Made by a program: the position numbers and the translations under genes. This document shows positions 4,358 to 24,887 of a stretch of DNA of 41,356 nucleotides, piece by piece. Within the stretch, counting starts at the first letter, position 1, and every line of letters starts with the position of its first letter. Source of the stretch: Limisphaerales bacterium (GTDB lineage: Bacteria > Verrucomicrobiota > Verrucomicrobiia > Limisphaerales > UBA11358); the NCBI GenBank assembly GCA_003161635.1, contig PMOA01000121.1:15291-56646 (forward strand), read 5' to 3'. A model generated the notes under the pieces. The model saw only the letters and a list, made by a program, of their open reading frames with translations. It was not told the origin of the DNA and made no database searches.

Positions 4358-4427
4358 ATCCCACATGTTACCGGGGCGCGGCGGAAGTTTTTGAAACACT
4401 AGGATTTCGGCACAACGATTGGTACGC

Positions 4428-5180
4428 ATGGCTATCACTGAATCGCAGACTGAGTTTTTTTCGCAACTGGCCGAACCGTTCACCGGCGAAGCGCTGTTTG
4501 ACTGCCTGCCAGACCTGGTCTTTTTCATCAAGAACAGCCGCGGCGAATACGTGGTCGTCAACCAGACCCTGGTCGAGCGATGCGGCTGCCGCGAAAAGCG
4601 CGAGTTGATCGGTCGTCGCGCGGATGAAGTGTTTCCGCCGCCGTTCGGCCAGAGTTACCGGGCGCAGGACGAACGGGTGTTGCGGAGCGGCGACACCATC
4701 CTCAACCAGCTTGAACTGCATTTCCACGCCTCCGGCGGGCGCGGCTGGTGCCTGACCGACAAGCTGCCGTTGCGCGGCCGGAAAGGAAACGTGATCGGAC
4801 TGGTCGGCGTTTCGAAGGACCTCAACCCGGCCAATGAGCGCAGCGAGGATTACTCGCGCGTGGCCAATGCCGTCCAGCAAATCCAGGCGCATTATGACGA
4901 ACCGTTCCGGGTGAAGGAACTGGCGGCGGGTGCGGGGCTTTCGGAGTTCCAGTTCGAGCACCGCATCCGGAAAATCTTCCAGCTTACCCCCGGCCAGTTG
5001 ATCCAGAAAACCCGCACGGAATTTGCGGTGCGCCGCCTGCGCGAGACGGATGATCACATTGTCGCCATTGCGCTGGATTGCGGCTACTCGGACCAAAGCG
5101 CCTTCACCCGCCAGTTTCACCAGACCATCGGATTGTCGCCTTCCGAGTCCCGGCGGACGTTCCGCAAAACGGCGGAATGA
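4428..5180 (+). CDS. AraC-family transcriptional regulator with N-terminal PAS domain
   Basis: This 250-residue regulator has a PAS sensor at about 15-130: FDCLPDLVFFIKNSRGEYV, then NQTLVERCGC, RRADEVFPP and a closing GNVIGLVGVSKDL. An AraC-type double helix-turn-helix follows at about 150-245, with VKELAAGAGLSEFQFEHRIRK and ALDCGYSDQSAFTRQF. ATG 4428 is chosen over an upstream TTG (4419) because it starts a natural N-terminus, MAITESQ. It is encoded directly upstream of, and on the same strand as, the long hydrolase run. Motif A lies 288 nt upstream of its start, and motif B begins about 30 nt after its stop. I infer that it controls the run and perhaps itself. The PAS ligand is unknown. Confidence 0.88.
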   Translation: MAITESQTEFFSQLAEPFTGEALFDCLPDLVFFIKNSRGEYVVVNQTLVERCGCREKRELIGRRADEVFPPPFGQSYRAQDERVLRSGDTILNQLELHFHASGGRGWCLTDKLPLRGRKGNVIGLVGVSKDLNPANERSEDYSRVANAVQQIQAHYDEPFRVKELAAGAGLSEFQFEHRIRKIFQLTPGQLIQKTRTEFAVRRLRETDDHIVAIALDCGYSDQSAFTRQFHQTIGLSPSESRRTFRKTAE

Positions 5181-5201: not shown

Positions 5202-5207
5202 GATGGA

Positions 5208-8324: not shown

Positions 8325-8335
8325 ACCGCACAGAA

Positions 8336-9970
8336 ATGAATAAACTTGCCAAACCCATCATCGCCGCCGCCGCGCTGGCTTTTCTGGCGCTGGGCTGTCG
8401 CACACATCCTGAACACCCTCAATCCGCCGCGAATGAAAAAATTCCGCAAGTCACCGCGCCACCCGAAACTTTTTTTGCCAAAATCCCGGAGCGGGACCGG
8501 GCCGTCGCGCGCCAGTTCTACAAAAAATACATTGAGATAAAAGGGGTGCCGCTGGCGGCTTCAGCCAAAGTTTCCGATGCGGCGCTGCAACGCGACTATT
8601 ACATCGTGACCCACATGCTGGCGGGGCGGCCGGACATTTTGGAAGCCATGGCGACCAACGGCACGCGTTTGATTATCATCGGCAAAAACCAGCGCTACAC
8701 GGACATGCCTGAATATCGGAACGCCTCGGATCCGGCGTATTTGAATGAGCGCGTCCGGGGCACGGGCGGTTTCAACATCACGAGCTTCGGCGAGGAAAAT
8801 TTGTTGTGCCTGCCCACCGACCGTTATGATCGTGAAAGCATTGCCGTGCATGAATTTTGCCACACGATTGACGCGGCGCTCCAGCGAATGGACCCGACCT
8901 GGCGCGGGCGGCTTCGCAAGACGTATCAGGATGCCATAAGCAAGGGATTGTGGAAAAATACTTACGCCGGTTCCAATCAGGCCGAGTATTGGGCGGAAGC
9001 CTGCCAGGCATACTTCGACTGCGGCCGCGCCAACAATTGGAACCACGGCCCCATCGCGCGCCGCGAGCAACTCAAACTCTACGACCCGGAAGTCTATGAG
9101 TTGATCCAGACTACTTTCAATTTAAGCCCGGTGCAGGATTGGCGCTATCACTGGTTGCAAAAGCTGCCAACCGTCACTCCACCGCCGACTCAATACAAGA
9201 TTGATCCTTACTACACCAAATTCACCTGGGCCGATGAATTTCCCGTCATCGGCCGGCAGGCGAGCGATGAAGCCATGCTCAAGGCCAACGACACCATTTG
9301 CAAAATGTTTGCCTACCGGCACGATATTCTGAAGGCGCTGATAAACGACAACGTGAAACTGGTGGTGCTGGGCCGGAATGAAAAACTGGGCGATTTGCCG
9401 GAATTGAAAAATGTGACGGACACAAACGTTGACCTCGCCGCGCGTTTCATGGATTACACGCCGGAATTGAAGCTTCTGGTTGTTCCCGAAGAAAACGTCC
9501 TGGGCAATCCCAACGACGCCGACGTAGGTCCCTGCCTCGAAATCCGCGAATTTGCCACGGCGCTGTATGATGTGTGCGGCACGCGGCCGGTGGACCCGAA
9601 TTGGAACAATCGCGGGCGCGACGTTCAGCAATATGAGCTGCGCCTCAAGCGCCTGGACGTTCAATTCGATGACAAGTTGAAGCAGCTTTACGATGCGGCG
9701 ATGAGCAAGGGAATGTGGAAAGACACGTCTGCGGTTCAAAACCCCACCGCCTATTGGGCGGAAGGCGTGCTGGCATATTTCAACGCCGCCGGTCAGGATG
9801 GCGCGCCGTTCAAGGACACGGGCCGGAACGGAGATTTCACGGACACCCCGCATCCGATCAACACACGCGAATTGCTGAAGGCTTATGACCCGGACCTTTT
9901 CGCAATCGTCAACGAAACCATGGCGTATGACGGGCACGTGGACTGGCGCTACACCCCTTACCGGCCGTGA
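8336..9970 (+). CDS. Duplicated metallopeptidase-like lipoprotein with one degenerate active site
   Basis: The product is a 544-residue predicted lipoprotein (LALGC lipobox at about residue 20) made of two homologous halves. The first half has HEFCH (172-176), an HExxH zinc site, followed by AEYWAEACQAYFD (from 216), whose Glu may supply the third ligand. The second half aligns with REFAT (404-408) in place of HEFCH but keeps AYWAEGVLAYFN. It has therefore lost both zinc histidines and should be inactive. Both halves also share RLIIIGKN/KLVVLGRN and DWRY segments. ATG 8336 is chosen because it gives the lipoprotein signal and lies 11 nt after the preceding stop; the frame is open further upstream inside the previous gene. 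Family and substrate are not known to me. Context suggests extracellular peptide cleavage or binding. Confidence 0.72.
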   Translation: MNKLAKPIIAAAALAFLALGCRTHPEHPQSAANEKIPQVTAPPETFFAKIPERDRAVARQFYKKYIEIKGVPLAASAKVSDAALQRDYYIVTHMLAGRPDILEAMATNGTRLIIIGKNQRYTDMPEYRNASDPAYLNERVRGTGGFNITSFGEENLLCLPTDRYDRESIAVHEFCHTIDAALQRMDPTWRGRLRKTYQDAISKGLWKNTYAGSNQAEYWAEACQAYFDCGRANNWNHGPIARREQLKLYDPEVYELIQTTFNLSPVQDWRYHWLQKLPTVTPPPTQYKIDPYYTKFTWADEFPVIGRQASDEAMLKANDTICKMFAYRHDILKALINDNVKLVVLGRNEKLGDLPELKNVTDTNVDLAARFMDYTPELKLLVVPEENVLGNPNDADVGPCLEIREFATALYDVCGTRPVDPNWNNRGRDVQQYELRLKRLDVQFDDKLKQLYDAAMSKGMWKDTSAVQNPTAYWAEGVLAYFNAAGQDGAPFKDTGRNGDFTDTPHPINTRELLKAYDPDLFAIVNETMAYDGHVDWRYTPYRP

Positions 9971-9994
9971 AGCCGGCGAACCCACATCGCTAAC

Positions 9995-11818
9995 ATGAAA
10001 ATGCCGCGGCGAGATTTTCTGAAGGCCGCTCCCGTGGCAACGTTCGCGCTGGTGCAAACGGCCCGCGGCATGGACCTGCCAACTCCGGCTCCGCCGGCCA
10101 GAATCAAACTCGAACCGTTCGATTACCAAGGCGTGCGGCTGCGCGAAAGCCGGTGGCTGAAGCAATATCAGGCCGCCCGCGATTTCTGGCTGGGATTGTC
10201 CGAGGACGACATCCTTCATGGTTATCGCCAGGCCGCCGGGTTGCCGGCACCGGGAAAACCGCTTGGCGGCTGGTGCCGGGTGAACAGCAGCACCGTCTTC
10301 GGCCAATGGTTGAGCGGCCTGTCGCGCCTGTATCGCGCCACTGGCGACGCGGCGATTCGCGACAAAGCGGTGCGTCTGTTCGAGGGCTGGGCGGAAACCA
10401 TGCAGCCGGACGGCAACTGCGGCATGGGACATTATCCCTTCGACAAGCTGGTCGGCGGACTGGTGGACTTGAAGCGCTATGGGGATTACAGCGGCGCCAT
10501 CCCGATGCTGGAGAAGGTCACACGTTGGGCAGAGCAGGCTTTGAGCCGGGAAAACGTGCCGGCGTCGCGCAATGGCCTCCCTTCCGGCCGGCGGGCCGAG
10601 TGGTATACCCTGGCGGAAAATCTCTATCGCGCCTTTCAGTTGACCGGCGATCCGAGATACGAAACGTTTGCCGGAGCGTGGCTGTATCCCTTCTATTGGA
10701 ACAAGTTTGCCGGGACGGCGGACCCGCCCGATGCCTATGGCGTTCACGCCTACAGCCACGTCAACACTTTCAGCAGCGCGGCAATGGCCTATGCGGTCAC
10801 CGGGGAGACGCACTATTTGGATTCGATTCGGAACGCCTATGATTGGCTGCAAGATGTGCAGTGCTACGCCACCGGTGGCTACGGACCTTCGGAGACCATC
10901 GTGGCGAACCGAGGCGGTCTTGGGCAGGTGCTGGATTACCGGTCAGACACCTTCGAAACCGGCTGCGGTTCCTGGGCCGCGTTCAAGCTGACACGCTACC
11001 TCCTGTCTTTCACCGGCGAAGCGCGCTATGGCGATTGGGCGGAACGGATGCTTTACAATGGCATCGGCACCGCGCTGCCGGTCACTCCGGACGGGCGGAC
11101 TTTCTATTATTCGGATTATCGCGGCGGCGGCGGGATGAAGGTCTATTACTGGGACACCTGGCCTTGCTGCTCGGGCACTTATCTTCAGGCCGTGGCCGAC
11201 TATCCCAACCTCATTTACTACAAAGATGCTTCCAGCCTGTATGTGAATCTGTTCCTGCCTTCGGAGGTGGTTTGGCGGCGCCCGGAGGGCGACGTCAAAC
11301 TGGTGCAGGACACGGATTATCCGGAAACCGAAACGACGACGTTGAGACTCGAACTGACCGGCAACATTCGGTTCCCGCTCCGTTTCCGCGTGCCCGCATG
11401 GACCCACGATGTCTCCGTCAAGGTGAATGGCGTGCCGGCGCAAGTGGCGTGCCGGCCCGGGGCCTGGGCTTCCTTGGAACGTGGATGGAACTCCGGGGAT
11501 CGAGTGGAAATCCGGATTCCGCTGACGTTTCGCATGCAGGCAGTGGACAAACAACATCCCCAGCGGGTTGCGGTCGTCCGCGAGCCGGTGGCCATGGTGA
11601 TGGAAGGGCTTTGGCAGGAAACGACGTTCACGTTGCCCAAGACCGACGCCGAACTCGAACAGATGTTCCTGGCCGACAACACGCCGGGCTTCTTCCAGGT
11701 CCGCTCCCCGTCCGGGGGCACCAACCACTCCCGGTTCCGTCCCTTCTACACGGAGGAGGAGCGGCAGCCGTATTATCTCTATTTCGACAAGCCATCGCTG
11801 CCGGTGGTCATGTGGTAA
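9995..11818 (+). CDS. GH127/DUF1680-type beta-L-arabinofuranosidase, Tat-exported
   Basis: The 607-residue protein starts with a Tat signal (MPRRDFLKAAPVATFALV) and is otherwise an all-helical barrel of the DUF1680/GH127 superfamily. Characterised members such as HypBA1 of Bifidobacterium longum remove beta-L-arabinofuranose from hydroxyproline-linked arabino-oligosaccharides using a zinc-bound cysteine nucleophile. Candidate zinc/catalytic residues here are Glu321 and Cys324 (FETGCGSW) and the pair Cys391-Cys392 (WPCCSGTY). In HypBA1 the first pair is spaced E-x-C, whereas here it is E-x-x-C, so this may be a divergent subfamily. The gene follows the metallopeptidase lipoprotein gene by 24 nt and probably shares its transcript. 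GH127 relatives also include other sugar specificities, so the substrate is inferred. Confidence 0.8.
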   Translation: MKMPRRDFLKAAPVATFALVQTARGMDLPTPAPPARIKLEPFDYQGVRLRESRWLKQYQAARDFWLGLSEDDILHGYRQAAGLPAPGKPLGGWCRVNSSTVFGQWLSGLSRLYRATGDAAIRDKAVRLFEGWAETMQPDGNCGMGHYPFDKLVGGLVDLKRYGDYSGAIPMLEKVTRWAEQALSRENVPASRNGLPSGRRAEWYTLAENLYRAFQLTGDPRYETFAGAWLYPFYWNKFAGTADPPDAYGVHAYSHVNTFSSAAMAYAVTGETHYLDSIRNAYDWLQDVQCYATGGYGPSETIVANRGGLGQVLDYRSDTFETGCGSWAAFKLTRYLLSFTGEARYGDWAERMLYNGIGTALPVTPDGRTFYYSDYRGGGGMKVYYWDTWPCCSGTYLQAVADYPNLIYYKDASSLYVNLFLPSEVVWRRPEGDVKLVQDTDYPETETTTLRLELTGNIRFPLRFRVPAWTHDVSVKVNGVPAQVACRPGAWASLERGWNSGDRVEIRIPLTFRMQAVDKQHPQRVAVVREPVAMVMEGLWQETTFTLPKTDAELEQMFLADNTPGFFQVRSPSGGTNHSRFRPFYTEEERQPYYLYFDKPSLPVVMW

Positions 11819-12014: not shown

Positions 12015-12052
12015 GATGATGCCGAATAGGTCGTGGTGGGTTTTGAGCATGG
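12015..12052 (+). promoter_or_regulatory. Shared regulatory motif, copy C
   Basis: CGAATAG (12023-12029), 11 nt with GTG at 12036-12038, then TTTTGAGCATGG (12041-12052). This is the same layout as copies A and B. It lies 64 nt before the S9 peptidase start at 12116 in an otherwise gene-free stretch (11819-12115). A TGTAAT (12080-12085) follows at nearly the same distance as the TATAGT after copy B. I infer that a second transcription unit starts here under the same regulator. Confidence 0.55.
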
Positions 12053-12115
12053 ACGAACGTCGTTGGAAAGATTTGAATTTGTAATCATCATTATCAACCT
12101 TGAGAATTGAAAAAA

Positions 12116-14581
12116 ATGAAACCTGTTCCTGCTTTTCACCAAACCCGACTTGGAAACGCAATTAAAATCACGTCAAATATGCATGCCATAACCAGCAGAC
12201 ACAAAATCCAAGGCGCCGGGCTGACAGTTTTTCTTCTAATGTCCACGGGGTTTGTTTCGGCGCAAACTGCCACTTCGCCGTCCGTCTCCGGTTCATCAGC
12301 GCTGCAACAGCCAACCGCCATCAGGCCGGAAGCGCCTCAACAGCGACGTGGGTTTGGGCGGCCGGAGCGCGGTGTGTATAAAGCGCGCATCACGCCGCAC
12401 TGGTTTGCCGGCGCGAACGGCGAGACCAACCGGTTCTGGTATCGCAATGACTTGAGCGGCGGCGCGAAGGAATTCATTCTGGTAGATGCCGAAAAAGGAA
12501 TCCGTCAGTCCGCGTTCGACCACGGGAAACTGGCGGCGGCGTTGTCGAAAGCCGCCGGCGGGGAATTCCAGGCGGACCACTTGCCGTTTTCCGAAATTGA
12601 ATTCGTCGCGGGCGGCATGGCGGTCAGGTTTGAGGCCGCCGACAAGACCTGGCAGTGCGACTTGAATTCGTATGCCTGTGCTCCCGCCGTGAGTGCGGCA
12701 GGGAATTCGCAAAGCCAGGGTCAGGACGAAGGCGAGCGTTCGGGACGGGGTGAACGCGGGTTCAGCCGCCGTTCGCCGGACGGCCAATGGACCGTCATAG
12801 TCAGGAACGACAACGTCTATGTTCGTTCCGAGGCGGACGGGAAGGAAATCCAATTGAGTCAGGACGGTGTGACCAACAACACCTACCGCCTGCCGGAATG
12901 GTCTCCCGATTCCCAAGCGCTCGTGGCCTGGCGCGTGGAACCGGGCGCCATTGGAGACGTTTACTTGATTCAATCGTCGCCTTCGGGCGGCGGCCGGGCG
13001 CGGCTCCAGACGCATCCTTATTCCCAGGCCGGAGACAAGTTTTCCCGTTATGAGTTGAACCTCTTTGAGATTGGCAGCCGCAAACAGATCAAACCGGAAG
13101 TGGACCGGTTCGAGCACGAGTGGGAATCGCCGCAACTGCATTGGGAGAAGGACACCAATCATTTCACCTACCGGCAGGAGGACCGCGGACATCAACGGTT
13201 GCGGCTCATCGAGGTGGACGACCGCAGCGGCGCGGTGCGCAACCTCGTGGATGAACAGACGAAGACTTTCATCTGGACTGCGCACATGGAAGGCCCGGAA
13301 GGCCTAGGTATTCGCATCTTCAGTTATCTGACAAACAGCGACGAGATCATTAATGCGTCCGAACGAGACGGCTGGCGGCATCTCTACCTGGTTGACCCGA
13401 AGGCCGGCGGAATCACGAACCAAATCACCAAAGGCGATTGGGTGGTGCGCGGCATCAATTACAATGACGAGGCGCGCCGCCAAATCTGGTTCCTGGCCAG
13501 CGGCATGAATCCGGGACAGGACCCTTACTTCCTCCAGTATTACCGCATCAATTTCGACGGCAGCGGACTGGTCGCGCTGACGGACGGCAATGGAAATCAC
13601 ACGGTGCAATTTTCACCGGACCGGAAATACCTGATTGACACTTACAGTCGCGTGGACATGGCGCCGATAAATGAACTCCGGCGTTGTTCGGATGGCGCGC
13701 TGGTCTGCAAGCTCGAGGAAGCCGACATCTCGGAATTGAAGGCCACCGGCTGGGAACCGCCGGAGGTGTTCGTCGCCAAAGCCAGGGATGGCAAAACGGA
13801 TATCTGGGGAAACATTTATCGTCCGCACAAACTGGACCCAAACCAAAAATATCCCGTCCTGGAAGACATTTACGCCGGCCCGCAGCATTCTTACACGCCA
13901 AAATCGTTCAGCAGTATTAATCGCTATAGCTGGTATAACGAACACGGGTTCATTGTGGTGAAACTGGATGGCATGGGCACCGCCAACCGCTCCAAAGCCT
14001 TTCACGATGTCTGCTGGCACAACCTCAAGGACGCCGGTTTTCCGGATCGCATCCTTTGGATCAAAGCCGCCACCGCGGAATATCCATACATGGACCTCGA
14101 TCGGGTGGGCCTGTTCGGCAATTCCGCCGGCGGCCAGAGCGCAGCCGGCGCGCTGTTGTTCCATCCGGATTCTTACAAGGTCGCGGTGGCCAATAGCGGC
14201 TGCCACGACAATCGGCTGGACAAAGCTTCGTGGAACGAACAGTGGATGGGCTACATGCCGCCCGACAAACTCTGGAGCCACGACCCGGACAACTGGTATT
14301 CGCAGTGCTCGAACATTGACAACGCCGCCAAGCTCAAGGGCAAGCTCCTGTTGATCGTCGGCGAGATGGACTCCAACGTTCCGACGGAATCAACGCTGCG
14401 ATTTGTGGACGCGCTGATCAAGGCGGGCAAGGACTTCGACATGCTGGTTGTCCCCGGTGCCGACCATGGTGCACCTAGCCGGATCACGCAGCGCAAGACG
14501 CATGACTTTTTCCTGCGCAACCTGCTCCACGAGGAACCGCCGGACTACAATGCATCTTTCACCGAAAGCAGTTCGGATTAA
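12116..14581 (+). CDS. Secreted S9 family (DPP-IV-like) prolyl peptidase
   Basis: This is an 821-residue enzyme with a signal peptide ending FVSAQ, an N-terminal beta-propeller (about 90-560) and a C-terminal alpha/beta hydrolase domain. The catalytic triad is visible: Ser670 in GNSAGG, Asp752 in GEMDSNV, His784 in GADHG. DPP-IV-type S9B enzymes remove N-terminal X-Pro dipeptides. ATG 12116 is taken as the start; ATG 12179 would give a shorter, also plausible signal peptide. It is a paralogue of the 18758 gene (shared GETNRFWYR, FILVDAEKG, GMGTANRSKAFHDVCW) but has a Gly/Ser/Arg-rich linker where that protein carries a VHL domain. Motif C lies just upstream. Confidence 0.9.
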   Translation: MKPVPAFHQTRLGNAIKITSNMHAITSRHKIQGAGLTVFLLMSTGFVSAQTATSPSVSGSSALQQPTAIRPEAPQQRRGFGRPERGVYKARITPHWFAGANGETNRFWYRNDLSGGAKEFILVDAEKGIRQSAFDHGKLAAALSKAAGGEFQADHLPFSEIEFVAGGMAVRFEAADKTWQCDLNSYACAPAVSAAGNSQSQGQDEGERSGRGERGFSRRSPDGQWTVIVRNDNVYVRSEADGKEIQLSQDGVTNNTYRLPEWSPDSQALVAWRVEPGAIGDVYLIQSSPSGGGRARLQTHPYSQAGDKFSRYELNLFEIGSRKQIKPEVDRFEHEWESPQLHWEKDTNHFTYRQEDRGHQRLRLIEVDDRSGAVRNLVDEQTKTFIWTAHMEGPEGLGIRIFSYLTNSDEIINASERDGWRHLYLVDPKAGGITNQITKGDWVVRGINYNDEARRQIWFLASGMNPGQDPYFLQYYRINFDGSGLVALTDGNGNHTVQFSPDRKYLIDTYSRVDMAPINELRRCSDGALVCKLEEADISELKATGWEPPEVFVAKARDGKTDIWGNIYRPHKLDPNQKYPVLEDIYAGPQHSYTPKSFSSINRYSWYNEHGFIVVKLDGMGTANRSKAFHDVCWHNLKDAGFPDRILWIKAATAEYPYMDLDRVGLFGNSAGGQSAAGALLFHPDSYKVAVANSGCHDNRLDKASWNEQWMGYMPPDKLWSHDPDNWYSQCSNIDNAAKLKGKLLLIVGEMDSNVPTESTLRFVDALIKAGKDFDMLVVPGADHGAPSRITQRKTHDFFLRNLLHEEPPDYNASFTESSSD

Positions 14582-14690
14582 AGTGGAGAGCCCATTGCGT
14601 TTTTGCTGAATGAAATCCAGACGAATCTCAACTTCCCTCACGCCGCCTTTGGCTGGCCGGGGAAAAGATTCACGGCAAACCAACCCAATC

Positions 14691-15788
14691 ATGAATCGAA
14701 TTCATTCTGTACGAGAAAAAATCATTTGTCTGCTCCTGTTCGCGCTCCTTCTCGGCGTGGTCGGATCGCGAGCGGCGAGCTATCCTGCGCCCACGGAAGG
14801 TGATTACACCATTCACGATTTCCATTTCCGCGATGGGGAATCGTTGCCTGAAGTCCGCATACATTACCTCACCTTGGGCACACCCCGACGGGACGACCAA
14901 GGCGTCGTCCGTAACGCCGTCCTGATCCTGCACGGCACCACAGGGAGCAGCGCCCAGTTCCTGCGCTCTGAATTCGCCGGCGAACTCTATTGCAAGGGCC
15001 AGCCCCTCGATGCGACGCGCTATTATCTCATCATTCCCGATAACCTCGGCCACGGACAATCCAGCAAACCGAGCGACGGCTTGCATGCGCGGTTTCCGCA
15101 ATACGGCTGCCTCGACATGGTTGAAGCGCAGTACCGTCTGTTGACTGAAGGTCTGGATGTGAATCATCTGCGGCTGGTTACGGGCACTTCGATGGGCGGA
15201 ATGCACACGTGGCTGTGGGGCGAGGTGTATCCGGATTTCATGGATGCGCTCATGCCGCTGGCCAGCCTGCCCATGCCGATTTCCGGCCGCAACCGCGTGT
15301 GGCGGCGCGTCATCATTGACGGCATCCGCGACTCGCCGGACTGGCACAATGGCGATTATCAATCCCAGCCTTCCGGGCTGCGCATCGCAGCGGAGATGCT
15401 TTATTTCATGGGCAGCAATCCGGTGTTGCGCATGAAAGAAGCGCCCACGCTCAAGCAGGCCGATGAAGTGCTCGACAGTTACGTGACCAACGTCATGACG
15501 AATCTCGACGCCAATGACGTGATGTACGCGTTCGCGGATTCTGAAGATTACGATCCAGGTCCGGGACTGGAAAAAATCACGGCGCCGCTGCTGGTGATCA
15601 ATTCCGCCGACGATTTAATCAACCCGCCGGAGTTGCGTGTCCTCGAACACGCAATCAAACGGGTGAAGCACGGCCGGGCCATCGTGATTCCCTACAGCGA
15701 CCAGACGGTGGGGCATGGCAGCCACACCAAGGCAGTCCTCTGGAAGAAATACTTGGTGCGTCTGTTGAGAAAGACGGAAAGGAAATGA
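14691..15788 (+). CDS. Secreted alpha/beta hydrolase related to homoserine O-acetyltransferase
   Basis: The product has 365 residues with a signal peptide (MNRIHSVREK then a Leu-rich core ending SRAAS). It has the alpha/beta hydrolase fold of the MetX-like family: oxyanion-region LILHGTTGSS, nucleophile elbow Ser167 in GTSMGG, Asp307/Asp308 in NSADD, His342 or His345 in VGHGSH. Because it is exported, an acetyltransferase role in methionine synthesis is unlikely. An esterase or acyl-group hydrolase acting on the cluster's substrate is more plausible. ATG 14691 is chosen because it yields the signal peptide; the frame is open a little further upstream. The PPIase gene begins 10 nt after its stop. 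Confidence 0.82.
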   Translation: MNRIHSVREKIICLLLFALLLGVVGSRAASYPAPTEGDYTIHDFHFRDGESLPEVRIHYLTLGTPRRDDQGVVRNAVLILHGTTGSSAQFLRSEFAGELYCKGQPLDATRYYLIIPDNLGHGQSSKPSDGLHARFPQYGCLDMVEAQYRLLTEGLDVNHLRLVTGTSMGGMHTWLWGEVYPDFMDALMPLASLPMPISGRNRVWRRVIIDGIRDSPDWHNGDYQSQPSGLRIAAEMLYFMGSNPVLRMKEAPTLKQADEVLDSYVTNVMTNLDANDVMYAFADSEDYDPGPGLEKITAPLLVINSADDLINPPELRVLEHAIKRVKHGRAIVIPYSDQTVGHGSHTKAVLWKKYLVRLLRKTERK

Positions 15789-15798
15789 ACTCAAACCC

Positions 15799-16506
15799 AT
15801 GAAACCTGGTGTGCGGTCGTTGTCCGGCATCGCCATTGGTGCGCTGTTCATCGCGTCCTGTACGGGCGCTTCACACCAGGCACACGAACAGGTCGAGGCC
15901 GCTTCGCTGCTGCTCGACCCGGACGCGCCGGAGATGAACCGCCGCGCGCCGGAGCTTTTCCATGTCCGCCTCGAAACCAGCAAAGGCGTGATCGTGATCG
16001 AAGCTCACCGCGACTGGGCGCCTCACGGTGCGGACCGTTTTTATAATCTTGTGCAGGCCGGTTATTACGACGATGCGCGTTTCTTCCGGGTGATTCGCGG
16101 ATGCTGGGCCCAGTTCGGCATCAACGGCGATCCCAAAATCTCGAACGTGTGGCGGACGCGGACGATTCCCGACGACCCGCGCCGCGAGTCGAATGTACGC
16201 GACACCGTCGCTTTCGCCTTTGCCGTCCCGAATGGCCGGACCACGCAGGTGTTCATCAACTTGCGGGATAACGCGGCCACCCATGACCCCGGGTCGTTCG
16301 TGCCGTTCGGAAAGGTGGTTGAAGGCATGAGCGTGGCGGACGCGCTTAATTCGGAATATGGCGAGGCGGCGGGCAGCGGCATCCGCGCCGGCAAGCAAGG
16401 GCCGCTTTTCCAAATGGGGAACGCATATCTCGAACGTAATTTCCCGCGCCTCGATTACATCCGGCGGACGACAGTCGGTGAACCACCCAGTGCCAACGGA
16501 CGATGA
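15799..16506 (+). CDS. Cyclophilin-type peptidyl-prolyl cis-trans isomerase, lipoprotein
   Basis: This 235-residue protein has a lipobox (FIASC) and a cyclophilin domain at about 52-215, with VIVIEAHRDWAPHGADRFYNLVQ-type strands, FFRVIRGCWAQFG and FGKVVEGMSVAD. Relative to human cyclophilin A, the catalytic Arg (FFRVI) and Gln (AQFG) are kept, while the position of Phe60 is Cys. It catalyses cis-trans isomerisation of X-Pro bonds, here probably in the periplasm or at the outer membrane. Its stop overlaps the ATG of the GH31 gene by 4 nt (ATGA), indicating one operon. Two post-proline peptidases in the same cluster make a role in processing proline-rich substrates attractive, but general folding is possible. 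Confidence 0.88.
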   Translation: MKPGVRSLSGIAIGALFIASCTGASHQAHEQVEAASLLLDPDAPEMNRRAPELFHVRLETSKGVIVIEAHRDWAPHGADRFYNLVQAGYYDDARFFRVIRGCWAQFGINGDPKISNVWRTRTIPDDPRRESNVRDTVAFAFAVPNGRTTQVFINLRDNAATHDPGSFVPFGKVVEGMSVADALNSEYGEAAGSGIRAGKQGPLFQMGNAYLERNFPRLDYIRRTTVGEPPSANGR

Positions 16507-18761
16507 AACCGGACACGCATCTTGACAGGGCCACCGTATCGCAATGCTTGACGCTATTCTGCCTGTTGTCCCTGGCTTGCCCAGCGGCAAAAGCCGACTC
16601 GCGCATTCAGTTCGGCGGTGTTCCGGTCGAGTTAATGATCGGCCAGGTAAGCGAGCGCACGTTGCGTCTCGAATTATCGCCGCTGGATGAGCAGGGGCAA
16701 ACGCGAGCGGAACTGCCCTCTGCCGTTCTCGTGCCACTTTCCATAACCGAGAAACTGCGCGTGCGTGAACTTGCCGGTGAAAGGAAACTTCGCGTCGGCC
16801 GGCTCCAGGTGACCATCAAGCCTCAACCGCTCACAATTTCTGTGCGCCGAGCGGATGGAACACTGGTGCAGGAACTTGCTTTTGACAGTGACGACGGCAC
16901 GAACTTCATCACGTTCCAAACCGATGCGTCCGTGTTGGGGTTGGGAGAGGGCGGGCCGCAGTTTGACCGGCGGGGACATTTTTATCCCCTGCTGAATGGC
17001 GAGCGCGCGCCGTCGCTGGCAACGGATGGCGCGAGGATTCTGGTCCCATTCCTCATCGGCACAGAGGGTTGGGCGCTGTTTGTGCCTGAACCCTCGGGCG
17101 AGTTTGATTTGCGCGGTGCGCGGGGTGTGTTCCATCCGCGAGAAGGCGCGACGCCGGGGCGGTTGGATGTGTTTGTGATGGACGCGCAGGAGCCGGCGAA
17201 CGCGATGCGCGATTTCGTGCGGCTGACGGGCACGCCGGCCATGCCGCCGAAATGGGCGCTCGGTTACATGCAGTCGCATCGCACGCTTTCCACGGAAGCG
17301 GACATTCTTGCCGAGGCGCGCACCTTCCGGGAAAAGCAACTGCCGTGCGACGCGTTCATCTTTCTGGGCACGGGCTTTTGCCCGGCCGGCTGGAACTTCG
17401 GACACAACTCGTTCCAGTTCAACACGAATGTCTTTGTTCACGACGCGGCCACCGTAATCCAGGAGTTGCACGCGGACCATTTGCATGTGGTGTTGCACGT
17501 CGTGCCACTGCAGCGAGATTACCCAACGCTCCACGGTCAGATTCCGCCCGCGCCGGGCGAGAAGCTGGATGCCCAGGACATCGGAGTGTATTGGGCGCGG
17601 CATCGCGAGTTGTTCGCTGACGGCGTGGACGGCTGGTGGCCGGACGAAGGCGACTGGTTCGACGTGCCGAGCCGGCTGGCGCGGCACCGGATGTATTATG
17701 AAGGCCCGCTGAGTGACCAGCCAAACGTCCGTCCGTGGAATTTGCAGCGCAACGGCTATGCCGGCATCGCGCGCTACGGCGGCTGGGTATGGTCCGGCGA
17801 CATCAGTTCAAGCTGGAAGACGCTGGCGGCACAGGTTGAAGTGGGGCAAAACTCGTCGCTGAGTGTCTCACCGTTCTGGGGCACGGACATCGGCGGTTTC
17901 TACCCGGGTGCGAACCGGGAATACACCGGCGAGCTTTATGTCCGCTGGTTTCAATTTGCCGCGTTCTGCCCCTTGTTCCGTTCCCACGGGCGCACCTGGC
18001 ATTTGCATCTGCCTTGGGGTTGGAACACCGGCGAAACCGGTCCGGTTGAGTCGAGACCGGCGCCCGACCCCGCCGAGTTGCACAATGCCGCAGTCGAGCC
18101 GATTTGCTGCAAGTATCTCGACTTGCGGTATCAGCTCATGCCTTACACGTACACCATCACGCGTGAGGCGCACGACACCGGGCTGCCGTTAATGCGCGCT
18201 TTATGGCTGCAATATCCGCACGACCCGCAGGCCGTGACACTCGGCGACGAATATCTTTGGGGCCGCGATCTCCTCATTGCGCCGGTTTTGGAGAAGGGCG
18301 CCAGGTCGCGCCGCGTCTATTTGCCGGCCGGAACATGGTTTGACTGGTGGACGGACGAGAAAGTCGCGGGCCAGCGCTGGATTGAGCGGCCGGTAGATTT
18401 GGAAACGATGCCGATTTACGCCCGCGCCGGCGCGATCATCCCGCTCGATCCGGTTCGACAATTCACCGCGCAGCCCGTGTCCGAACCCGCGACGTTGCGG
18501 GTGTACCCGGGCGCGGACGGCACTTTCAACCTTTACGATGACGACGGCCAAAGCCTCGGCTACCGTGACGGCTCGGATCCGAAGATGGTTTGGATTCGCA
18601 TCCATTGGAATGATTCCACACACTGTCTCACGCTGCGGCCGGAAGGCCGAATGAAGCATTGGACGGGCGGCACGCGGGTGTACGCCGTAAAAGTCATCGG
18701 CAGTGACGTGGAGCCAAAGCGCATTGAATTCCGCGGCACGCCTGTGGAAATGAACCTATGA
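16503..18761 (+). CDS. Secreted GH31 family alpha-glycosidase
   Basis: The product has 752 residues and a signal peptide ending AAKAD. An N-terminal beta-sandwich (about 35-245) precedes the GH31 (beta/alpha)8 barrel (PPKWALGYMQSHRT onward) and C-terminal beta domains ending with a DUF5110-like segment. The likely nucleophile is Asp381 in GWWPDEGDW and the likely acid/base is Asp433 in WSGDISSSW; SPFWGTDIGGF is also typical of GH31. Family members are alpha-glucosidases, alpha-xylosidases or alpha-galactosidases, and the exact sugar cannot be read from the sequence. Start and stop overlap both neighbours by 4 nt (ATGA at each end), so it is translated within the cyclophilin-GH31-S9 operon. 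Confidence 0.92.
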   Translation: MKPDTHLDRATVSQCLTLFCLLSLACPAAKADSRIQFGGVPVELMIGQVSERTLRLELSPLDEQGQTRAELPSAVLVPLSITEKLRVRELAGERKLRVGRLQVTIKPQPLTISVRRADGTLVQELAFDSDDGTNFITFQTDASVLGLGEGGPQFDRRGHFYPLLNGERAPSLATDGARILVPFLIGTEGWALFVPEPSGEFDLRGARGVFHPREGATPGRLDVFVMDAQEPANAMRDFVRLTGTPAMPPKWALGYMQSHRTLSTEADILAEARTFREKQLPCDAFIFLGTGFCPAGWNFGHNSFQFNTNVFVHDAATVIQELHADHLHVVLHVVPLQRDYPTLHGQIPPAPGEKLDAQDIGVYWARHRELFADGVDGWWPDEGDWFDVPSRLARHRMYYEGPLSDQPNVRPWNLQRNGYAGIARYGGWVWSGDISSSWKTLAAQVEVGQNSSLSVSPFWGTDIGGFYPGANREYTGELYVRWFQFAAFCPLFRSHGRTWHLHLPWGWNTGETGPVESRPAPDPAELHNAAVEPICCKYLDLRYQLMPYTYTITREAHDTGLPLMRALWLQYPHDPQAVTLGDEYLWGRDLLIAPVLEKGARSRRVYLPAGTWFDWWTDEKVAGQRWIERPVDLETMPIYARAGAIIPLDPVRQFTAQPVSEPATLRVYPGADGTFNLYDDDGQSLGYRDGSDPKMVWIRIHWNDSTHCLTLRPEGRMKHWTGGTRVYAVKVIGSDVEPKRIEFRGTPVEMNL

Positions 18762-21379
18762 CCGTAAAATTTTTTATGATCATAAAACCGCACCGGAAAA
18801 CAATCGTCCTAGTCCTCACCCTACTCGCGGCGGCTTGCGTCTCGGCGCAAAATGCGGGAACCAACGCCACCAGGCTCGTTTTCCGCGACCGTGTCGAGCC
18901 GAACTGGTTTGCCGATTCCAGCGGGGAGACCAACAAGTTCTGGTATCGCCTCGATCTCGCGAAAGGCAAGCGGGAGTTCATTCTTGTGGACGTGATCCAG
19001 GGAACGCGGCAACCCGCCTTCGACCAGGCGCGCGGCGCCGGCGCTTTGGCGAAATTGACCAAGCATGAAGTGGATGCCGAACATCTGCCCATTGAATCCA
19101 TCGAGTTCTCGAGCGATGGCAAGACGGTGACACTCCACGGAACCGACGGCGATTGGAAATTGGACCTGACGTCATACACAGTCACAGCCGAGACCAACAA
19201 CCTTTCGTCCGGGCGCCAGTTGCCCGCCGGGCGCATGCCGCATCCGTCGCAAACGACCGGACCGGAAACGGAAATCACCTTTGTGAACCAACTACCGGCG
19301 CCGGTGGACGTGTTCTGGATTGACCCGGACGGAAAGCGAGTTCCCTATGGCAATCTTGCGCCCGGTCAACGCCGGACCCAGCACACCTTCGCCGGGCACG
19401 TCTGGGTGGTCACCGGTCGCGCCGGCATCGTCCTCGCCGTGTTTGAGGCGGAAGCGAAACCCGGCCTCGCCGTCATCAGTGGTCGTGCTGCCGGCTTTGG
19501 TTTCGGGCGGTTCCGGCGCGAAGGTGGCCCGAGTCCGTCCGCACCCACCGGCGTGTCACCCGACGGCAAGTGGCAGGCTATCGTGTATGGCAACAACCTC
19601 TACTTGCGCGACCTGAAGACGGGTAAAGAAACGCCGCTGACCTACGACGCGAACCCCAACAGCACCTATGCGCGCGACGAGGAATTCAATCAAAGCATTG
19701 ACATGCAGTATGACGTCAGCAATCCAGCGACGCCGACGCCCGAAGAGTATTGGTCGCCGGATTCGCGGCATCTGGTCGCGATGCGCCTGCAACCGGGCAC
19801 GCAGCGCCGGGTTTACGAGGTCGAATCGTCACCGGAGGACCAGCTTCAGCCCAGGCTGACGTCTTATCCCTACCTCAAGCCCGGAGATCAGGTTCCCATT
19901 AGCAAACCGCACCTGTTCGACATCGAAACCGGGAAGGAAATTCCCGTCAGCGACGCGCTCTTTCCCAATCCATGGTCCATTGGCGAGGTCCGATGGGCCA
20001 CCAATTCCGAGCGGTTCACATTTCTCTACAACCAACGCGGCCATCAGGCGTTGCGCATCCTGGCCGTGGACGCGCAGACCGGTGACGTCAAACCCATTGT
20101 GGATGAGGAAAGCAAAACGTTCATTGATTACTCCGGCAAATTCTTTTCCGAATATCTGGACGACACGCATGAAATCGTCTGGATGTCCGAGCGTGACGGC
20201 TGGAATCATCTCTACCTCTACGACGCGAAAACCGGCAAGGCGAAAAACCAGATCACCAGGGGCGAATGGGTCGTGCGCAATGTGGATTACGTGGACGAGA
20301 AAAAGAGACAAATCTTGTTTCAAGCCGGCGGCATCGTGCCGGGACAGGATCCTTACTGCATCCAGGAATGCCGGGTGAACCTTGACGGGACGGGTTTGAC
20401 GATCCTCACCGACGGCGACGGCACGCACTCGGTCCAGTTTTCGCCGGACCGGCGTTTCTTCATTGACACCTGGTCGCGGGTGGACCTGCCGCCCGTCAAC
20501 GAATTGCGCCGCAGCGACGACGGTAAACTGGTTTGCAAACTTGAGGAAGCCGATGCCACCGAGTTGTATGCGACCGGCTGGAAACCGCCGGAGCCGTTTG
20601 TTGCGAAGGGCCGCGATGGCGTCACCGACATTTACGGCGTGATCTGGCGGCCCAAGAATTTTGACCCGAACAAAAAATATCCGGTCATCGAGGACATTTA
20701 CGCCGGCCCACAGGATTCGTTTGCGCCCAAGGCTTTTAACGACTCTTACACGCAACAGGAACTGGCTGATGGCGGATTCATCGTCGTGCAGATGGACGGC
20801 ATGGGCACAGCCAACCGCTCGAAGAAATTCCACGACGTTTGCTGGAAAAACCTGCGCGACGCCGGTTTTCCCGACCGCATCCTTTGGATCGAGGCGGCGG
20901 CGGCAAAGTATCCTTGCATTGACCTGACCCGCGTGGGCATTTACGGCACTTCGGCGGGGGGACAGGACGCTTTGCGCGAAATGTTGGATCACGGGGATTT
21001 CTACAAGGTGTGCGTCTCCGATTCGGGTTGCCAGGACAACCGCATGGATAAAATCTGGTGGAACGAACAATGGATGGGCTGGCCGGTGGACGACAGCTAC
21101 GTTCGCAGTTCGAACGTGGTGGACGCGCACAAACTGCAGGGCCGGCTGCTCCTGATGGTCGGTGAGATGGACAAAAACGTGGACCCGTCCAGCACGATGC
21201 AGGTCGTCAACGCGCTGATCAAGGCGGACAAGGATTTCGACCTGCTCTACATGCCCGGAGCCGGTCACGGGGTGGCAAGAACGCCCTACGGCTGGCGGCG
21301 CTTGCAGGAGTTTTTCAAAAAGGATCTCCTCGGCACTGAGGTGAAAATAGATTCTCATCATGCCGCGACTGCGCCCTGA
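18758..21379 (+). CDS. Secreted S9 (DPP-IV-like) prolyl peptidase with inserted VHL beta domain
   Basis: This 873-residue exported enzyme has a signal peptide ending CVSAQ, an interrupted N-terminal propeller and a C-terminal alpha/beta hydrolase with triad Ser732 (GTSAGG), Asp805 (GEMDKNV), His837 (GAGHG). Between about 171 and 245, where its paralogue at 12116 has only a linker, lies a domain closely matching the beta domain of human von Hippel-Lindau protein. Trp187, Tyr197, His209, Thr210, His214 and Trp216 fall exactly at the spacing of VHL Trp88, Tyr98, His110, Ser111, His115 and Trp117, the hydroxyproline-binding residues. The start overlaps the GH31 stop (ATGA); ATG 18776 is an alternative. 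I infer a peptidase targeted to hydroxyproline- or proline-containing substrates. Confidence 0.92.
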   Translation: MTVKFFMIIKPHRKTIVLVLTLLAAACVSAQNAGTNATRLVFRDRVEPNWFADSSGETNKFWYRLDLAKGKREFILVDVIQGTRQPAFDQARGAGALAKLTKHEVDAEHLPIESIEFSSDGKTVTLHGTDGDWKLDLTSYTVTAETNNLSSGRQLPAGRMPHPSQTTGPETEITFVNQLPAPVDVFWIDPDGKRVPYGNLAPGQRRTQHTFAGHVWVVTGRAGIVLAVFEAEAKPGLAVISGRAAGFGFGRFRREGGPSPSAPTGVSPDGKWQAIVYGNNLYLRDLKTGKETPLTYDANPNSTYARDEEFNQSIDMQYDVSNPATPTPEEYWSPDSRHLVAMRLQPGTQRRVYEVESSPEDQLQPRLTSYPYLKPGDQVPISKPHLFDIETGKEIPVSDALFPNPWSIGEVRWATNSERFTFLYNQRGHQALRILAVDAQTGDVKPIVDEESKTFIDYSGKFFSEYLDDTHEIVWMSERDGWNHLYLYDAKTGKAKNQITRGEWVVRNVDYVDEKKRQILFQAGGIVPGQDPYCIQECRVNLDGTGLTILTDGDGTHSVQFSPDRRFFIDTWSRVDLPPVNELRRSDDGKLVCKLEEADATELYATGWKPPEPFVAKGRDGVTDIYGVIWRPKNFDPNKKYPVIEDIYAGPQDSFAPKAFNDSYTQQELADGGFIVVQMDGMGTANRSKKFHDVCWKNLRDAGFPDRILWIEAAAAKYPCIDLTRVGIYGTSAGGQDALREMLDHGDFYKVCVSDSGCQDNRMDKIWWNEQWMGWPVDDSYVRSSNVVDAHKLQGRLLLMVGEMDKNVDPSSTMQVVNALIKADKDFDLLYMPGAGHGVARTPYGWRRLQEFFKKDLLGTEVKIDSHHAATAP

Positions 21380-21409
21380 AAGACAACCCACAGTTTTAGC
21401 AACGATTTT

Positions 21410-23179
21410 ATGAATAAAACAACATGGATGATGCTGATCGGAGCGTTGACCTTTTTGATGGCGGCCACGCCGGTTCTTGCCCAACCATCGGAGGATGACA
21501 AATTGAACGCGTTTTTCAAAAATTACCTGGACAAATATTCCCAGCAGCAACCGCTCGCCGCCACGCAGCTGGGCGACCACCGGTTTGATAATCTGCTCGA
21601 TGACATTTCGCCAAAGGCGCGCGAAGGCTGGCTGGCCTTGACGGAGAAAACGCTCCGGGAATTGCCGCGGCAGGTGGATTACCGGAAGCTGCCGCGAAAC
21701 GGCCAGATTGACTTCGAGATTTTTCAACACAATTTGCAGACGCAGATATGGGAGACAAAAAATTTCCAGCCATTCCAGGAAGACCCGCGCACTTACGGCG
21801 GTTACATCAACGACAGCGTCTATCTGCTGCTCACGCAGTCCACGCTGCCGAAGGAGACCAACATCGCCAACTGCATCGCCCGCATGGCGCAAATCTCACG
21901 CATCGTGGCCGGGGCGGAGAAGACGCTGACCCATCCGCCCAAACCGATTCTGGAGACCGCCATCCGCCAGAATCAGGGTTCGATTGACTTTTATGAAAAG
22001 GAAATTTTTCAACTCGCCGGAGACACTCCACAACTCGACAAACTCAAAGCCGCCGCCGCGCCGGTGGTTGCCGTGCTGAAGGATTACCAGAAATTCCTCG
22101 AAAGGCCGTTGATGGCGCGCGCCACCAGCGAATGGCGGCTTGGTAAACGGATGTTCGGCAAGAAATTCGAGCTGGAGACCGACGCGGGAATCACCGCCGG
22201 GCAAAACCTGGCGGACGCGGAAACGGAGTTCGCCCACGTCCGGCGCGACATGTATGTTCTCGCGCGCCAGCTTTGGTACCAGTATTTCCCGCAACAACCG
22301 TTGCCGCCGGACGACGACGCCGGTGAGCGCGAAACCGTCCTGAAAGTCATTGACGCGATTGACCAGGACCATGGCAAGCCGGAGGACCTGGTATTGGATG
22401 CGCGCGCCACCATTGAGCGCATCAAGGCTTTCATCCGCAAAAGGAATTACATCCGGCTGCCTGACCCCGACACCTGCGAAGTGATCGAGATGCCGGAATT
22501 CCGTCGCGGGAACTCGCTGGCGTATCTCGACAACGCGCCGCCGCTGGACCCCGACACGCACAGTTATTACGCCGTCAGCCCGCCGCCGTCGGACTGGACG
22601 CCGCGGCAGGTGGAGAGTTTTCTGGAGGAATACAACCGTTACATGCTGCAAATCCTGACCATCCACGAAGGCTATCCCGGACATTACGTGCAACTGGCGC
22701 AGGCCGTGCGCGTGCCTTCACTGATCCGGCGCGTCTATCAATCCGGCGTTTACGTCGAGGGCTGGGCGGTCTATGGCGAGATGACGATGCTGAACGAGGG
22801 CTACGGCGACGGCGATATGCGGCTGCGGCTGATGGAACTCAAATTCTATCTGCGCGCGGTGGCCAACTCGATTCTCGACTACAAAATGCACTGCACACAG
22901 ATGACGGATGCCGAAGCGCTCAAGTTTTTGACGGAGGACGCGTTTCAGTCGGAGGGCGAGGCGAGATTGAAATTGATCCGCGCCAAGCAAAGTTCCGTGC
23001 AGCTTAGCACCTACTTTGTCGGGCGCATGGCGCATTACCGGCTGCACCAGCAAATCGAACGTGAAATGGGCGGCAAGTTCAGCCTTGCCGCGTATCACAA
23101 CGCAGTGATTGCCCCCGGCTCGATTCCGGTGAAATATCTGCCGGAACTGGTTCGCGCGCAGTTGGGTTTGCCCAAATAA
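21410..23179 (+). CDS. Secreted DUF885-family metallopeptidase
   Basis: This 589-residue protein has a signal peptide (MNKTTWMMLIGAL to PVLAQ) and is otherwise the largely helical DUF885 fold. It carries HEGYPGH (419-425), the family's zinc site, and a downstream VEGWAVYGE motif that supplies a further Glu ligand. DUF885 proteins are zinc peptidases or carboxypeptidase-like enzymes of uncertain specificity. It starts 30 nt after the VHL-S9 peptidase gene and is followed by the peptide transporter, so it probably trims peptides released by the S9 enzymes before import. Confidence 0.87.
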   Translation: MNKTTWMMLIGALTFLMAATPVLAQPSEDDKLNAFFKNYLDKYSQQQPLAATQLGDHRFDNLLDDISPKAREGWLALTEKTLRELPRQVDYRKLPRNGQIDFEIFQHNLQTQIWETKNFQPFQEDPRTYGGYINDSVYLLLTQSTLPKETNIANCIARMAQISRIVAGAEKTLTHPPKPILETAIRQNQGSIDFYEKEIFQLAGDTPQLDKLKAAAAPVVAVLKDYQKFLERPLMARATSEWRLGKRMFGKKFELETDAGITAGQNLADAETEFAHVRRDMYVLARQLWYQYFPQQPLPPDDDAGERETVLKVIDAIDQDHGKPEDLVLDARATIERIKAFIRKRNYIRLPDPDTCEVIEMPEFRRGNSLAYLDNAPPLDPDTHSYYAVSPPPSDWTPRQVESFLEEYNRYMLQILTIHEGYPGHYVQLAQAVRVPSLIRRVYQSGVYVEGWAVYGEMTMLNEGYGDGDMRLRLMELKFYLRAVANSILDYKMHCTQMTDAEALKFLTEDAFQSEGEARLKLIRAKQSSVQLSTYFVGRMAHYRLHQQIEREMGGKFSLAAYHNAVIAPGSIPVKYLPELVRAQLGLPK

Positions 23180-23243
23180 TCCCGGTGCGTGAAACGATGA
23201 ACGGTAAAAATTCAGAATTGAGCTTCAACCAGGATCATAAACC

Positions 23244-24683: not shown

Positions 24684-24887
24684 GCTTTAACCATGCTTCC
24701 GTCACCGCCAAAGCCGGTTGGTCCGGATGAAAAGTGCATTTGGAGCAGACAACAGTGGATTTCACTCATATACAAAAAATTAATTGAACGTATCCTTGAG
24801 TCTTGTGGGGACAAGCCAAGGTCTCTGCTGGCATGGGATGGCTTTGGCATTGCACGATTTCTGAAAATTTTCACATCCAATGAATTT

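What the first reader, a model, noticed from the sequence alone, without database searches (positions are those of the whole stretch)
19268..19493. VHL beta domain with an intact hydroxyproline pocket inserted in a bacterial DPP-IV-like peptidase
Residues ~171-245 match human VHL beta domain without gaps across the pocket: Trp187, Tyr197, His209, Thr210, His214, Trp216 sit where VHL has Trp88, Tyr98, His110, Ser111, His115, Trp117, the residues contacting hydroxyproline in HIF. The paralogous peptidase at 12116 lacks the insert, so it is an added module. A hydroxyproline reader fused to a post-proline peptidase suggests targeting to hydroxyproline-containing proteins (plant HRGPs, collagen).
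Basis: partly seen in the sequence, partly recalled or inferred. Interest (0 to 1): 0.88.

Follow-up and report, generated by a model that had tools for sequence, protein, structure and literature searches.

The report
VHL-domain peptidase linked to hydroxyproline use
A bacterium carries a probably secreted protein-cutting enzyme with the same pocket that human cells use to recognise hydroxyproline, and in related bacteria this gene repeatedly sits beside genes for eating hydroxyproline, so the domain probably steers the enzyme to hydroxyproline-containing proteins such as plant cell-wall proteins.

The parts
18758..21379 (+). VHL-bearing S9 (DPP-IV-like) peptidase, 873 aa, hydrophobic N-terminal helix that looks like an export signal
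19268..19492 (+). VHL beta domain, residues 171-245
19316..19405 (+). Codons of the Hyp pocket: Trp187 (W88) 19316-19318, Tyr197 (Y98) 19346-19348, Thr210 (S111) 19385-19387, His214 (H115) 19397-19399, Trp216 (W117) 19403-19405
   Evidence: conservation; human contacts and Thr at the S111 site of Drosophila VHL from passages of PMC4195687
20951..21268 (+). Catalytic triad: codons of Ser732, Asp805 and His837 (first and last base of the span)
   Evidence: invariant in the 29 aligned proteins of A2, window included; assignment by alignment to solved DPP4 chains
12107..14581 (+). Second S9 peptidase, without the VHL domain (probable loss)
21410..23179 (+). DUF885 protein, putative metallopeptidase; the family is fused to VHL-S9 in P0040
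23244..24683 (+). POT/PTR2-family di/tripeptide transporter
8072..9970 (+). Metallopeptidase-like protein with HEFCHTID motif; ATLF (M34-like) Pfam match of 21.9 bits, below the cut-off of 27.4
   Evidence: relatives lie directly upstream of VHL-S9 in L039 and L060; L037 and L045 have an N-terminal extension with the HEFAHxxD motif on the VHL-S9 protein itself
9995..11818 (+). GH127-type (beta-L-arabinofuranosidase-like) hydrolase
   Evidence: 115 bits; PDB relatives; substrate not resolved
15799..16506 (+). Cyclophilin-type peptidyl-prolyl isomerase
16503..18761 (+). GH31 glycoside hydrolase, overlaps the VHL-S9 start
4419..5180 (+). PAS-AraC regulator, 79% identical to the regulator beside the Hyp operon on another contig
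14610..15788 (+). alpha/beta hydrolase of the same gene run
5391..8324 (+). DUF5695 protein (function unknown); relatives lie between the epimerase and VHL-S9 in L029, L030 and L045
24693..28922 (+). Second DUF5695 protein, last gene of the co-directional run

Best explanation
The VHL beta domain is a hydroxyproline-docking module. It is strung between low-confidence segments (residues 147-151 and 243-263), after the first propeller strands of a probably exported S9 peptidase. It binds unglycosylated 4-Hyp in peptides through Trp187, Tyr197, Thr210, His214 and Trp216, much as pVHL binds hydroxylated HIF, and so concentrates the peptidase on Hyp-containing proteins. In this organism these are most likely plant or algal Hyp-rich glycoproteins. 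Arabinofuranosidases (GH127, GH51 type) first strip the Hyp arabinosides; the metallopeptidase-like protein, the S9 pair and the DUF885 protein cut the peptide chain; the POT transporter takes up di/tripeptides; and a separate operon converts Hyp by epimerase, D-Hyp oxidation, deamination and a semialdehyde dehydrogenase. Shown by computation: domain, fold, pocket conservation, linkage to Hyp genes, candidate operon. Inferred: export, Hyp binding, substrate, roles of the single enzymes, order of steps.
For: Domain and fold. Pocket: in 141 domains from Pfam-HMM-found loci the six lowest-entropy columns of 75 are N78, W117, W88, Y98, S111 (T 121, S 18) and H115; all five contacts are kept in 55 of 57 rows with an S9 motif in the longer loci, and in 5 of 5 proteins of metallopeptidase type. 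Drosophila VHL also has Thr at S111 (PMC4195687 passages). Linkage: 46 of 115 VHL+ genomes have an epimerase of >=270 bits and 14 of 115 have it within 5 kb, 14 of 14 on one strand, rough expectation 0.14. Gene orders: L173-L175, L178-L180, L182; L029, L030, L045, L049, L069, L105. Control: 17 of 28 epimerase+ VHL- Verrucomicrobiota genomes have a DPPIV_N match of >=80 bits and none of these is near the epimerase, against 3 of 7 VHL+ (Fisher p 0.017). Own genome: the epimerase fits the 4-Hyp epimerase model best (432 bits; proline racemase 214), with DHDPS, ALDH and DAO families beside it, then GH127 and GH51-type genes. Regulator 79% identical.
Against: 69 of 115 VHL+ genomes show no epimerase of >=270 bits. 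Ten of the 14 close pairs are in one phylum, so they are not independent events. Presence alone is weakly linked: at >=270 bits 20 of 38 against 7 of 30 in Armatimonadota (p 0.024) but 19 of 56 against 11 of 50 in Planctomycetota (p 0.20) (counts; tests). Genome size was not controlled. In the window's genome the VHL gene and the Hyp operon are on different contigs. The own epimerase is under its model's cut-off (432 against 450). The Pfam model is partly built on eukaryotic VHL (recalled), which favours pocket residues. Only 110 of 141 domains keep all five contacts; 17 have Ala for His115, and one linked S9 gene (L180) has Phe for Trp117. DAO- and ALDH-like neighbours in relatives are only 22-27% identical to those of the window's genome. 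No binding or activity data exist.
Confidence: 0.72

Rival explanations
1. The S9 enzyme serves Hyp catabolism, but its VHL domain binds free Hyp or a Hyp dipeptide as a product or allosteric sensor rather than docking substrate protein.
For: Same pocket and linkage evidence. The human pocket binds small Hyp compounds (capped Hyp, 4awj, among the rows).
Against: The domain lies between low-confidence segments and recurs at the C-terminus of metallopeptidase-type proteins, as a docking module would. The pVHL groove binds longer peptides (recalled).
Confidence: 0.12
2. VHL is a proline-rich or general polypeptide-binding module; the neighbourhood concerns proline-rich protein and Hyp is incidental.
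For: Neighbours include a cyclophilin and S9 enzymes, which act on proline peptides in general. Many VHL+ genomes lack the epimerase.
Against: Ser/Thr111 and His115, which bind the 4-hydroxyl in pVHL (recalled), are among the six most conserved columns. The epimerase of the window's genome scores as 4-Hyp epimerase over proline racemase (432 against 214 bits).
Confidence: 0.1
3. The domain is a structural spacer of the propeller; pocket residues are kept for folding.
For: Asn78, the most conserved column, is thought to be structural (recalled). The peptidase appears to have lost the domain twice and remained.
Against: The next five columns are the Hyp contacts. Domains on sulfatases, SASA-type esterases and LRR proteins have changed one or more of them, often His115 (0 of 9 checked intact), so the fold does not need them all, while S9 rows keep them (55 of 57).
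Confidence: 0.06

Closest known systems
Animal pVHL (VHL beta domain; 1lm8, 1lqb, 4ajy)
   Different: No VHL alpha-domain family matched; the domain is part of a bacterial peptidase, not an E3 ligase adaptor; about 27% identity in the structural alignment.
Family S9B: bacterial DPP4 and prolyl tripeptidyl peptidase (5yp1, 2d5l/2z3z)
   Same: Propeller plus alpha/beta hydrolase, triad and YAGP region.
   Different: VHL insert after the first propeller strands; GTSAGGQ where the solved enzymes have GWSNGGY or GWSYGGF; the Glu pair is not conserved in the family.
HypBA1/HypBA2/HypAA extensin systems of Bifidobacterium and Xanthomonas, with an adjacent prolyl oligopeptidase gene in X. euvesicatoria
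   Same: Arabinofuranosidases with a post-proline peptidase for Hyp-rich glycoproteins; PMC6085000 suggests that this peptidase may degrade them (passages).
   Different: The passages read mention no VHL domain and no Hyp catabolic genes; the window's GH127 is not clearly HypBA1-like.
Litorilituus sediminis hypothetical protein with a VHL domain (PMC9002001, passages)
   Same: A bacterial VHL domain in print.
   Different: A hypothetical protein (domain at about 131-212), discussed there as a tumour suppressor; no Hyp pocket or neighbourhood analysis in the passages seen.
Carbohydrate-binding modules of glycoside hydrolases (recalled)
   Same: Would work like one: a binding module attached to several hydrolases.
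   Different: The proposed ligand is a modified amino acid in a protein.

Membership tests
VHL beta domain (Pfam PF01847) | HMM score over the curated cut-off | tested here: met
   31.5 bits against 21; 34.6 bits in the genome search
VHL beta domain (Pfam PF01847) | VHL beta-sandwich fold | tested here: met
   Domain model against PDB:
VHL beta domain (Pfam PF01847) | Hyp contacts W88, Y98, S111, H115, W117 | tested here: met
   In the window four identical and Thr for Ser111; family
VHL beta domain (Pfam PF01847) | Binding of 4-hydroxyproline peptides | not testable with these tools
   No binding assay; no coordinates returned for docking
pVHL E3-ligase adaptor | VHL alpha domain with elongin-binding helix | tested here: not met
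   Of 7 Pfam families none is a VHL alpha domain; a linker and DPPIV_N follow the beta domain
Peptidase family S9B (DPP4-like) | DPPIV_N propeller plus Peptidase_S9 domain | tested here: met
   structure rows
Peptidase family S9B (DPP4-like) | Ser-Asp-His triad | tested here: met
   Ser732, Asp805, His837 invariant in the 29 rows of A2
Peptidase family S9B (DPP4-like) | Glu-Glu motif that anchors the substrate N-terminus | tested here: inconclusive
   Asp-Glu-Glu occurs near this place in the window but is not aligned with the DPP4 pair and is not conserved in relatives
trans-4-Hyp catabolic operon (own genome) | 4-Hyp epimerase | tested here: inconclusive
   Best NCBIfam model is 4-Hyp epimerase at 432 bits, under its cut-off of 450; proline racemase 214 bits
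trans-4-Hyp catabolic operon (own genome) | DHDPS-family deaminase, DAO-type oxidase, ALDH beside it | tested here: met
   PF00701, PF01266, PF00171 on one strand; exact activities not tested
HypBA-type extensin deglycosylation | GH127 acting on Hyp-linked beta-L-Araf | tested here: inconclusive
   GH127 family present; nearest NCBIfam model for the L158 genes is aceric acid hydrolase, far below cut-off

The most novel reading that the evidence does not exclude
The VHL beta domain is at root a bacterial hydroxyproline-binding module, the protein counterpart of a carbohydrate-binding module. S9 peptidases and HEFAHxxD metallopeptidase-type proteins of Planctomycetota, Verrucomicrobiota and Armatimonadota carry it with an intact pocket to dock on Hyp-rich glycoproteins, while copies on sulfatases and esterases changed the pocket and bind something else. 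Reading Hyp for food is the older use of this fold, from which animals recruited VHL for oxygen sensing.
Probability: 0.35. Interest if true: 0.95.

Novelty: new variant of a known kind. Interest (0 to 1): 0.85.

Why it matters
VHL is known as the human oxygen-sensing reader of hydroxyproline. A large bacterial set with the same pocket, tied by gene neighbourhood to hydroxyproline breakdown, would give the domain a second and perhaps older job. It would also supply many small Hyp-binding domains for detecting or enriching Hyp proteins, and point to enzymes by which bacteria attack extensins and other Hyp-rich proteins. The claim can be tested directly with one purified 91-residue domain and two peptides.

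Tried and rejected
Rejected: that the paralogue at 12107 shows the enzyme before insertion. A first tree with a too distant outgroup left this open; the second is a quick tree without bootstrap, rooted at the midpoint, which falls on a long VHL-less branch (L191). Not supported: that the organism makes its own Hyp with a PF13640-type prolyl hydroxylase; none was found in its genome (other hydroxylase families not searched). Dropped as weak: that the window's GH127 is a HypBA1-type enzyme; its PDB relatives are mixed.

Led nowhere: search of viral contigs with the whole protein (no relative); PDB search with the metallopeptidase-like protein (one hit at E 0.31, an antibody chain); promoter and terminator scan of 4900-24800 (7 promoter-like sites against 7.4 expected, 26 terminator-like against 25.8). 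Placing the VHL domain relative to the active site was not possible because model coordinates are not returned.

Pocket statistics: the A4 loci were fetched by the pattern HT[FY][AG]GHVW (best 80 of 175 kept), so they were not used for this. A first count on 78 domains held only the best-scoring Pfam matches, eight of them (L107-L114) from genomes first chosen by that pattern, and put two probably cut-off S9 genes (L122, L149) under non-S9. It was redone with the remaining Pfam matches fetched and L107-L114 left out: 141 domains in 131 loci, five of them repeats in L025. Domains were located with my own profile built from A4. The redo kept the ranking but showed the group with Ala for His115.

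Literature: no paper on a VHL domain in a bacterial peptidase or on bacterial Hyp-binding domains was found in searches (open-licence PMC library only). Papers were seen as passages; the others only as listings.

Full report

Distribution. The phylum of the window's genome is taken as Verrucomicrobiota from the names of close relatives. Among genomes searched with the Pfam model, VHL occurs in 21 of 387 of that phylum, 56 of 392 in the phylum of the Tautonia genome G387 (Planctomycetota) and 38 of 151 in the phylum of the Chthonomonas genome G388 (Armatimonadota), and in 0 of 14 control genomes each time. A protein search with residues 150-262 returned 59 proteins including the window's own. 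A DNA scan gave 175 relatives among 176 pattern matches in genome contigs; the best 80 were kept, and most of these carry an S9 peptidase. Other carriers: 400-460-residue proteins with a HEFAHxxD motif and a C-terminal VHL (L124, L125, L133, and L142, the same gene as L176), a longer VHL plus ATLF-family protein (L132), sulfatases (L024, L026, L215, L225), SASA-type esterases (L195, L204, L213), LRR proteins (L195, L200), small proteins (L006, L022, L127) and a repeat protein (L025). L026 reaches the Pfam cut-off (21.9 bits) but is not listed, and the L225 sulfatase but not.

Pocket. I used 141 domains in 131 loci found by the Pfam model, leaving out genomes first chosen by the DNA pattern. 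The six lowest-entropy columns of 75 are Asn177 (N78, 141 of 141), Trp216 (W117, 138), Trp187 (W88, 136), Tyr197 (Y98, 132), Thr210 (S111; Thr 121, Ser 18) and His214 (H115, 119). The last five are the human Hyp contacts named in PMC4195687 (passages), which also reports Thr at the S111 site of Drosophila VHL. His209 (H110) is His in 51 of 141. All five contacts are kept in 110 of 141. The breaks are not random: of rows with an S9 motif in the longer loci 55 of 57 are intact (two have Phe for Trp117), and so are 5 of 5 of metallopeptidase type and 3 of 3 small proteins, while 0 of 9 checked domains on sulfatases, esterases and LRR proteins are intact, mostly through Ala or Asn for His115. One further propeller protein, L207, has Tyr for Trp88. 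The remaining short loci were not classed by protein type. So the complete pocket goes with peptidases. Some bias towards the eukaryotic pattern remains, since the Pfam model includes eukaryotic VHL (recalled).

Genome context. The window's co-directional run 5391-28922 holds DUF5695, a HEFCHTID metallopeptidase-like protein, GH127, two S9 peptidases, an alpha/beta hydrolase, a cyclophilin, GH31, DUF885, a POT peptide transporter and a second DUF5695. A PAS-AraC regulator lies upstream (4419-5180). The same genome has one Pro_racemase-family gene, in a one-strand cluster with DHDPS-, ALDH-, Pyr_redox- and DAO-family genes. NCBIfam ranks it as 4-Hyp epimerase (432 bits, slightly under the cut-off of 450) far above proline racemase (214). 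Next to it are a PAS-AraC regulator, two GH127-type genes (one split into two ORFs) and an arabinofuranosidase of GH51 type. That regulator is 79% identical to the one in the window. Relatives of it stand in 17 of the 80 named loci. No PF13640 hydroxylase was found.

Linkage test. Of 115 VHL+ genomes, 46 have an epimerase of at least 270 bits, and in 14 of 115 it lies within 5 kb of a VHL gene: 10 Armatimonadota, 3 Verrucomicrobiota, 1 Planctomycetota, 14 of 14 on the same strand. The rough expectation is 0.14, assuming 4.5-Mb genomes (positions). The pairs are not independent events and the p-value should not be quoted as such. In the one Planctomycetota case the VHL protein is the metallopeptidase type (L176). 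Gene orders seen directly: epimerase, DHDPS, VHL-S9 (L174); DHDPS, epimerase, DAO-like, VHL-S9 (L180, whose VHL has Phe for Trp117); epimerase, VHL-S9, POT transporter, DAO-like (L175); and both genes close together in L173, L178, L179 and L182. In L030 and L045 the Hyp genes are divergent from DUF5695 and the VHL-S9 gene; in L049 only the regulator lies between epimerase and VHL-S9; in L029, a close relative, the window-type run starts next to the epimerase; L069 and L105 also hold both. Epimerase was found in these 6 of the 80 named loci, many of which are cut short.

Presence and controls. In Verrucomicrobiota 7 of 21 VHL+ against 28 of 366 VHL- genomes have an epimerase of >=270 bits (p 0.0013). 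In the other two phyla it is 36 of 80 against 19 of 80 at E 1e-3 (p 0.007), or 31 of 80 against 18 of 80 at >=270 bits (p 0.039); by phylum 20 of 38 against 7 of 30 (Armatimonadota, p 0.024) and 19 of 56 against 11 of 50 (Planctomycetota, p 0.20). The two samples of 80 differ in make-up (56+24 and 50+30) and genome size was not controlled, so presence alone is modest evidence and the linkage carries the weight. As a control for the peptidase itself, 17 of 28 epimerase+ VHL- Verrucomicrobiota genomes have a DPPIV_N match of >=80 bits and none lies near the epimerase, against 3 of 7 VHL+ genomes.

History. The window's VHL-less paralogue is 59-65% identical to proteins that carry VHL at the same place. 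In a tree with VHL-less S9 proteins of other genomes, it and its relative in L028 fall inside VHL-bearing groups (SH-aLRT 97 and 100), and well-supported branches force at least three changes. The tree is a quick one, rooted at the midpoint. The domain was most likely lost here; L189 is a second apparent loss.

Mechanism. In pVHL the 4-hydroxyl is buried against Ser111 and His115 (recalled; contacts), so arabinosylated Hyp should not fit. I infer that glycosidases act first, then the VHL module docks on bare Hyp and the peptidases work nearby. Fusions support joint action of the peptidases: a HEFAHxxD-bearing extension on VHL-S9 in L037 and L045, and DUF885 with VHL-S9 in P0040. The S9 cleavage mode is open: the Glu pair of DPP4 is not conserved, and the residue after the catalytic Ser is Ala, where the solved relatives have Tyr (2d5l) or Asn (5yp1).

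What is known. Automatic Pfam annotation already records the domain pair. Papers seen in passages describe one bacterial VHL protein discussed as a tumour suppressor (PMC9002001), Hyp-arabinoside enzymes with a neighbouring prolyl oligopeptidase gene (PMC6085000), GH127 and extensin use in Latescibacteria (PMC4454575) and neighbourhood networks of the proline racemase family, whose text does not contain VHL (PMC4113996). None of the passages makes the link proposed here. The verdict is a new variant of a known kind: a known domain on a known peptidase with a role that I did not find described.

Noticed in passing
L024, L026, L215, L225 (sulfatases); L195, L204, L213 (SASA-type esterases); L195, L200 (LRR proteins): Non-peptidase proteins with a VHL domain whose Hyp pocket is changed, mostly His115 to Ala or Asn; they may read another ligand.
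   Followed up: partly
L025 (genome G234): A protein with at least five VHL-like repeats, none with all five Hyp contacts.
   Followed up: partly
L124, L125, L133, L142 (= L176): A family of 400-460-residue HEFAHxxD metallopeptidase-like proteins with a C-terminal VHL domain, one of them near a Hyp epimerase.
   Followed up: partly
L006, L022, L127: Small proteins of 127-180 residues that are little more than a VHL domain, with TH or SH in place of GH before Pro-Trp; pocket intact.
   Followed up: no
window 5391-8324 and 24693-28922: Two DUF5695 proteins at either end of the gene run; relatives recur in L029, L030, L037 and L045 next to VHL-S9, so DUF5695 may act on the same substrate.
   Followed up: partly
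L158:7639-10134: A GH127-type gene split into two ORFs, a frameshift or an assembly error.
   Followed up: no
L076, L081, L085, L090: MAG records titled Klebsiella pneumoniae or Akkermansia muciniphila carry this gene; the titles are probably misnamed bins.
   Followed up: no
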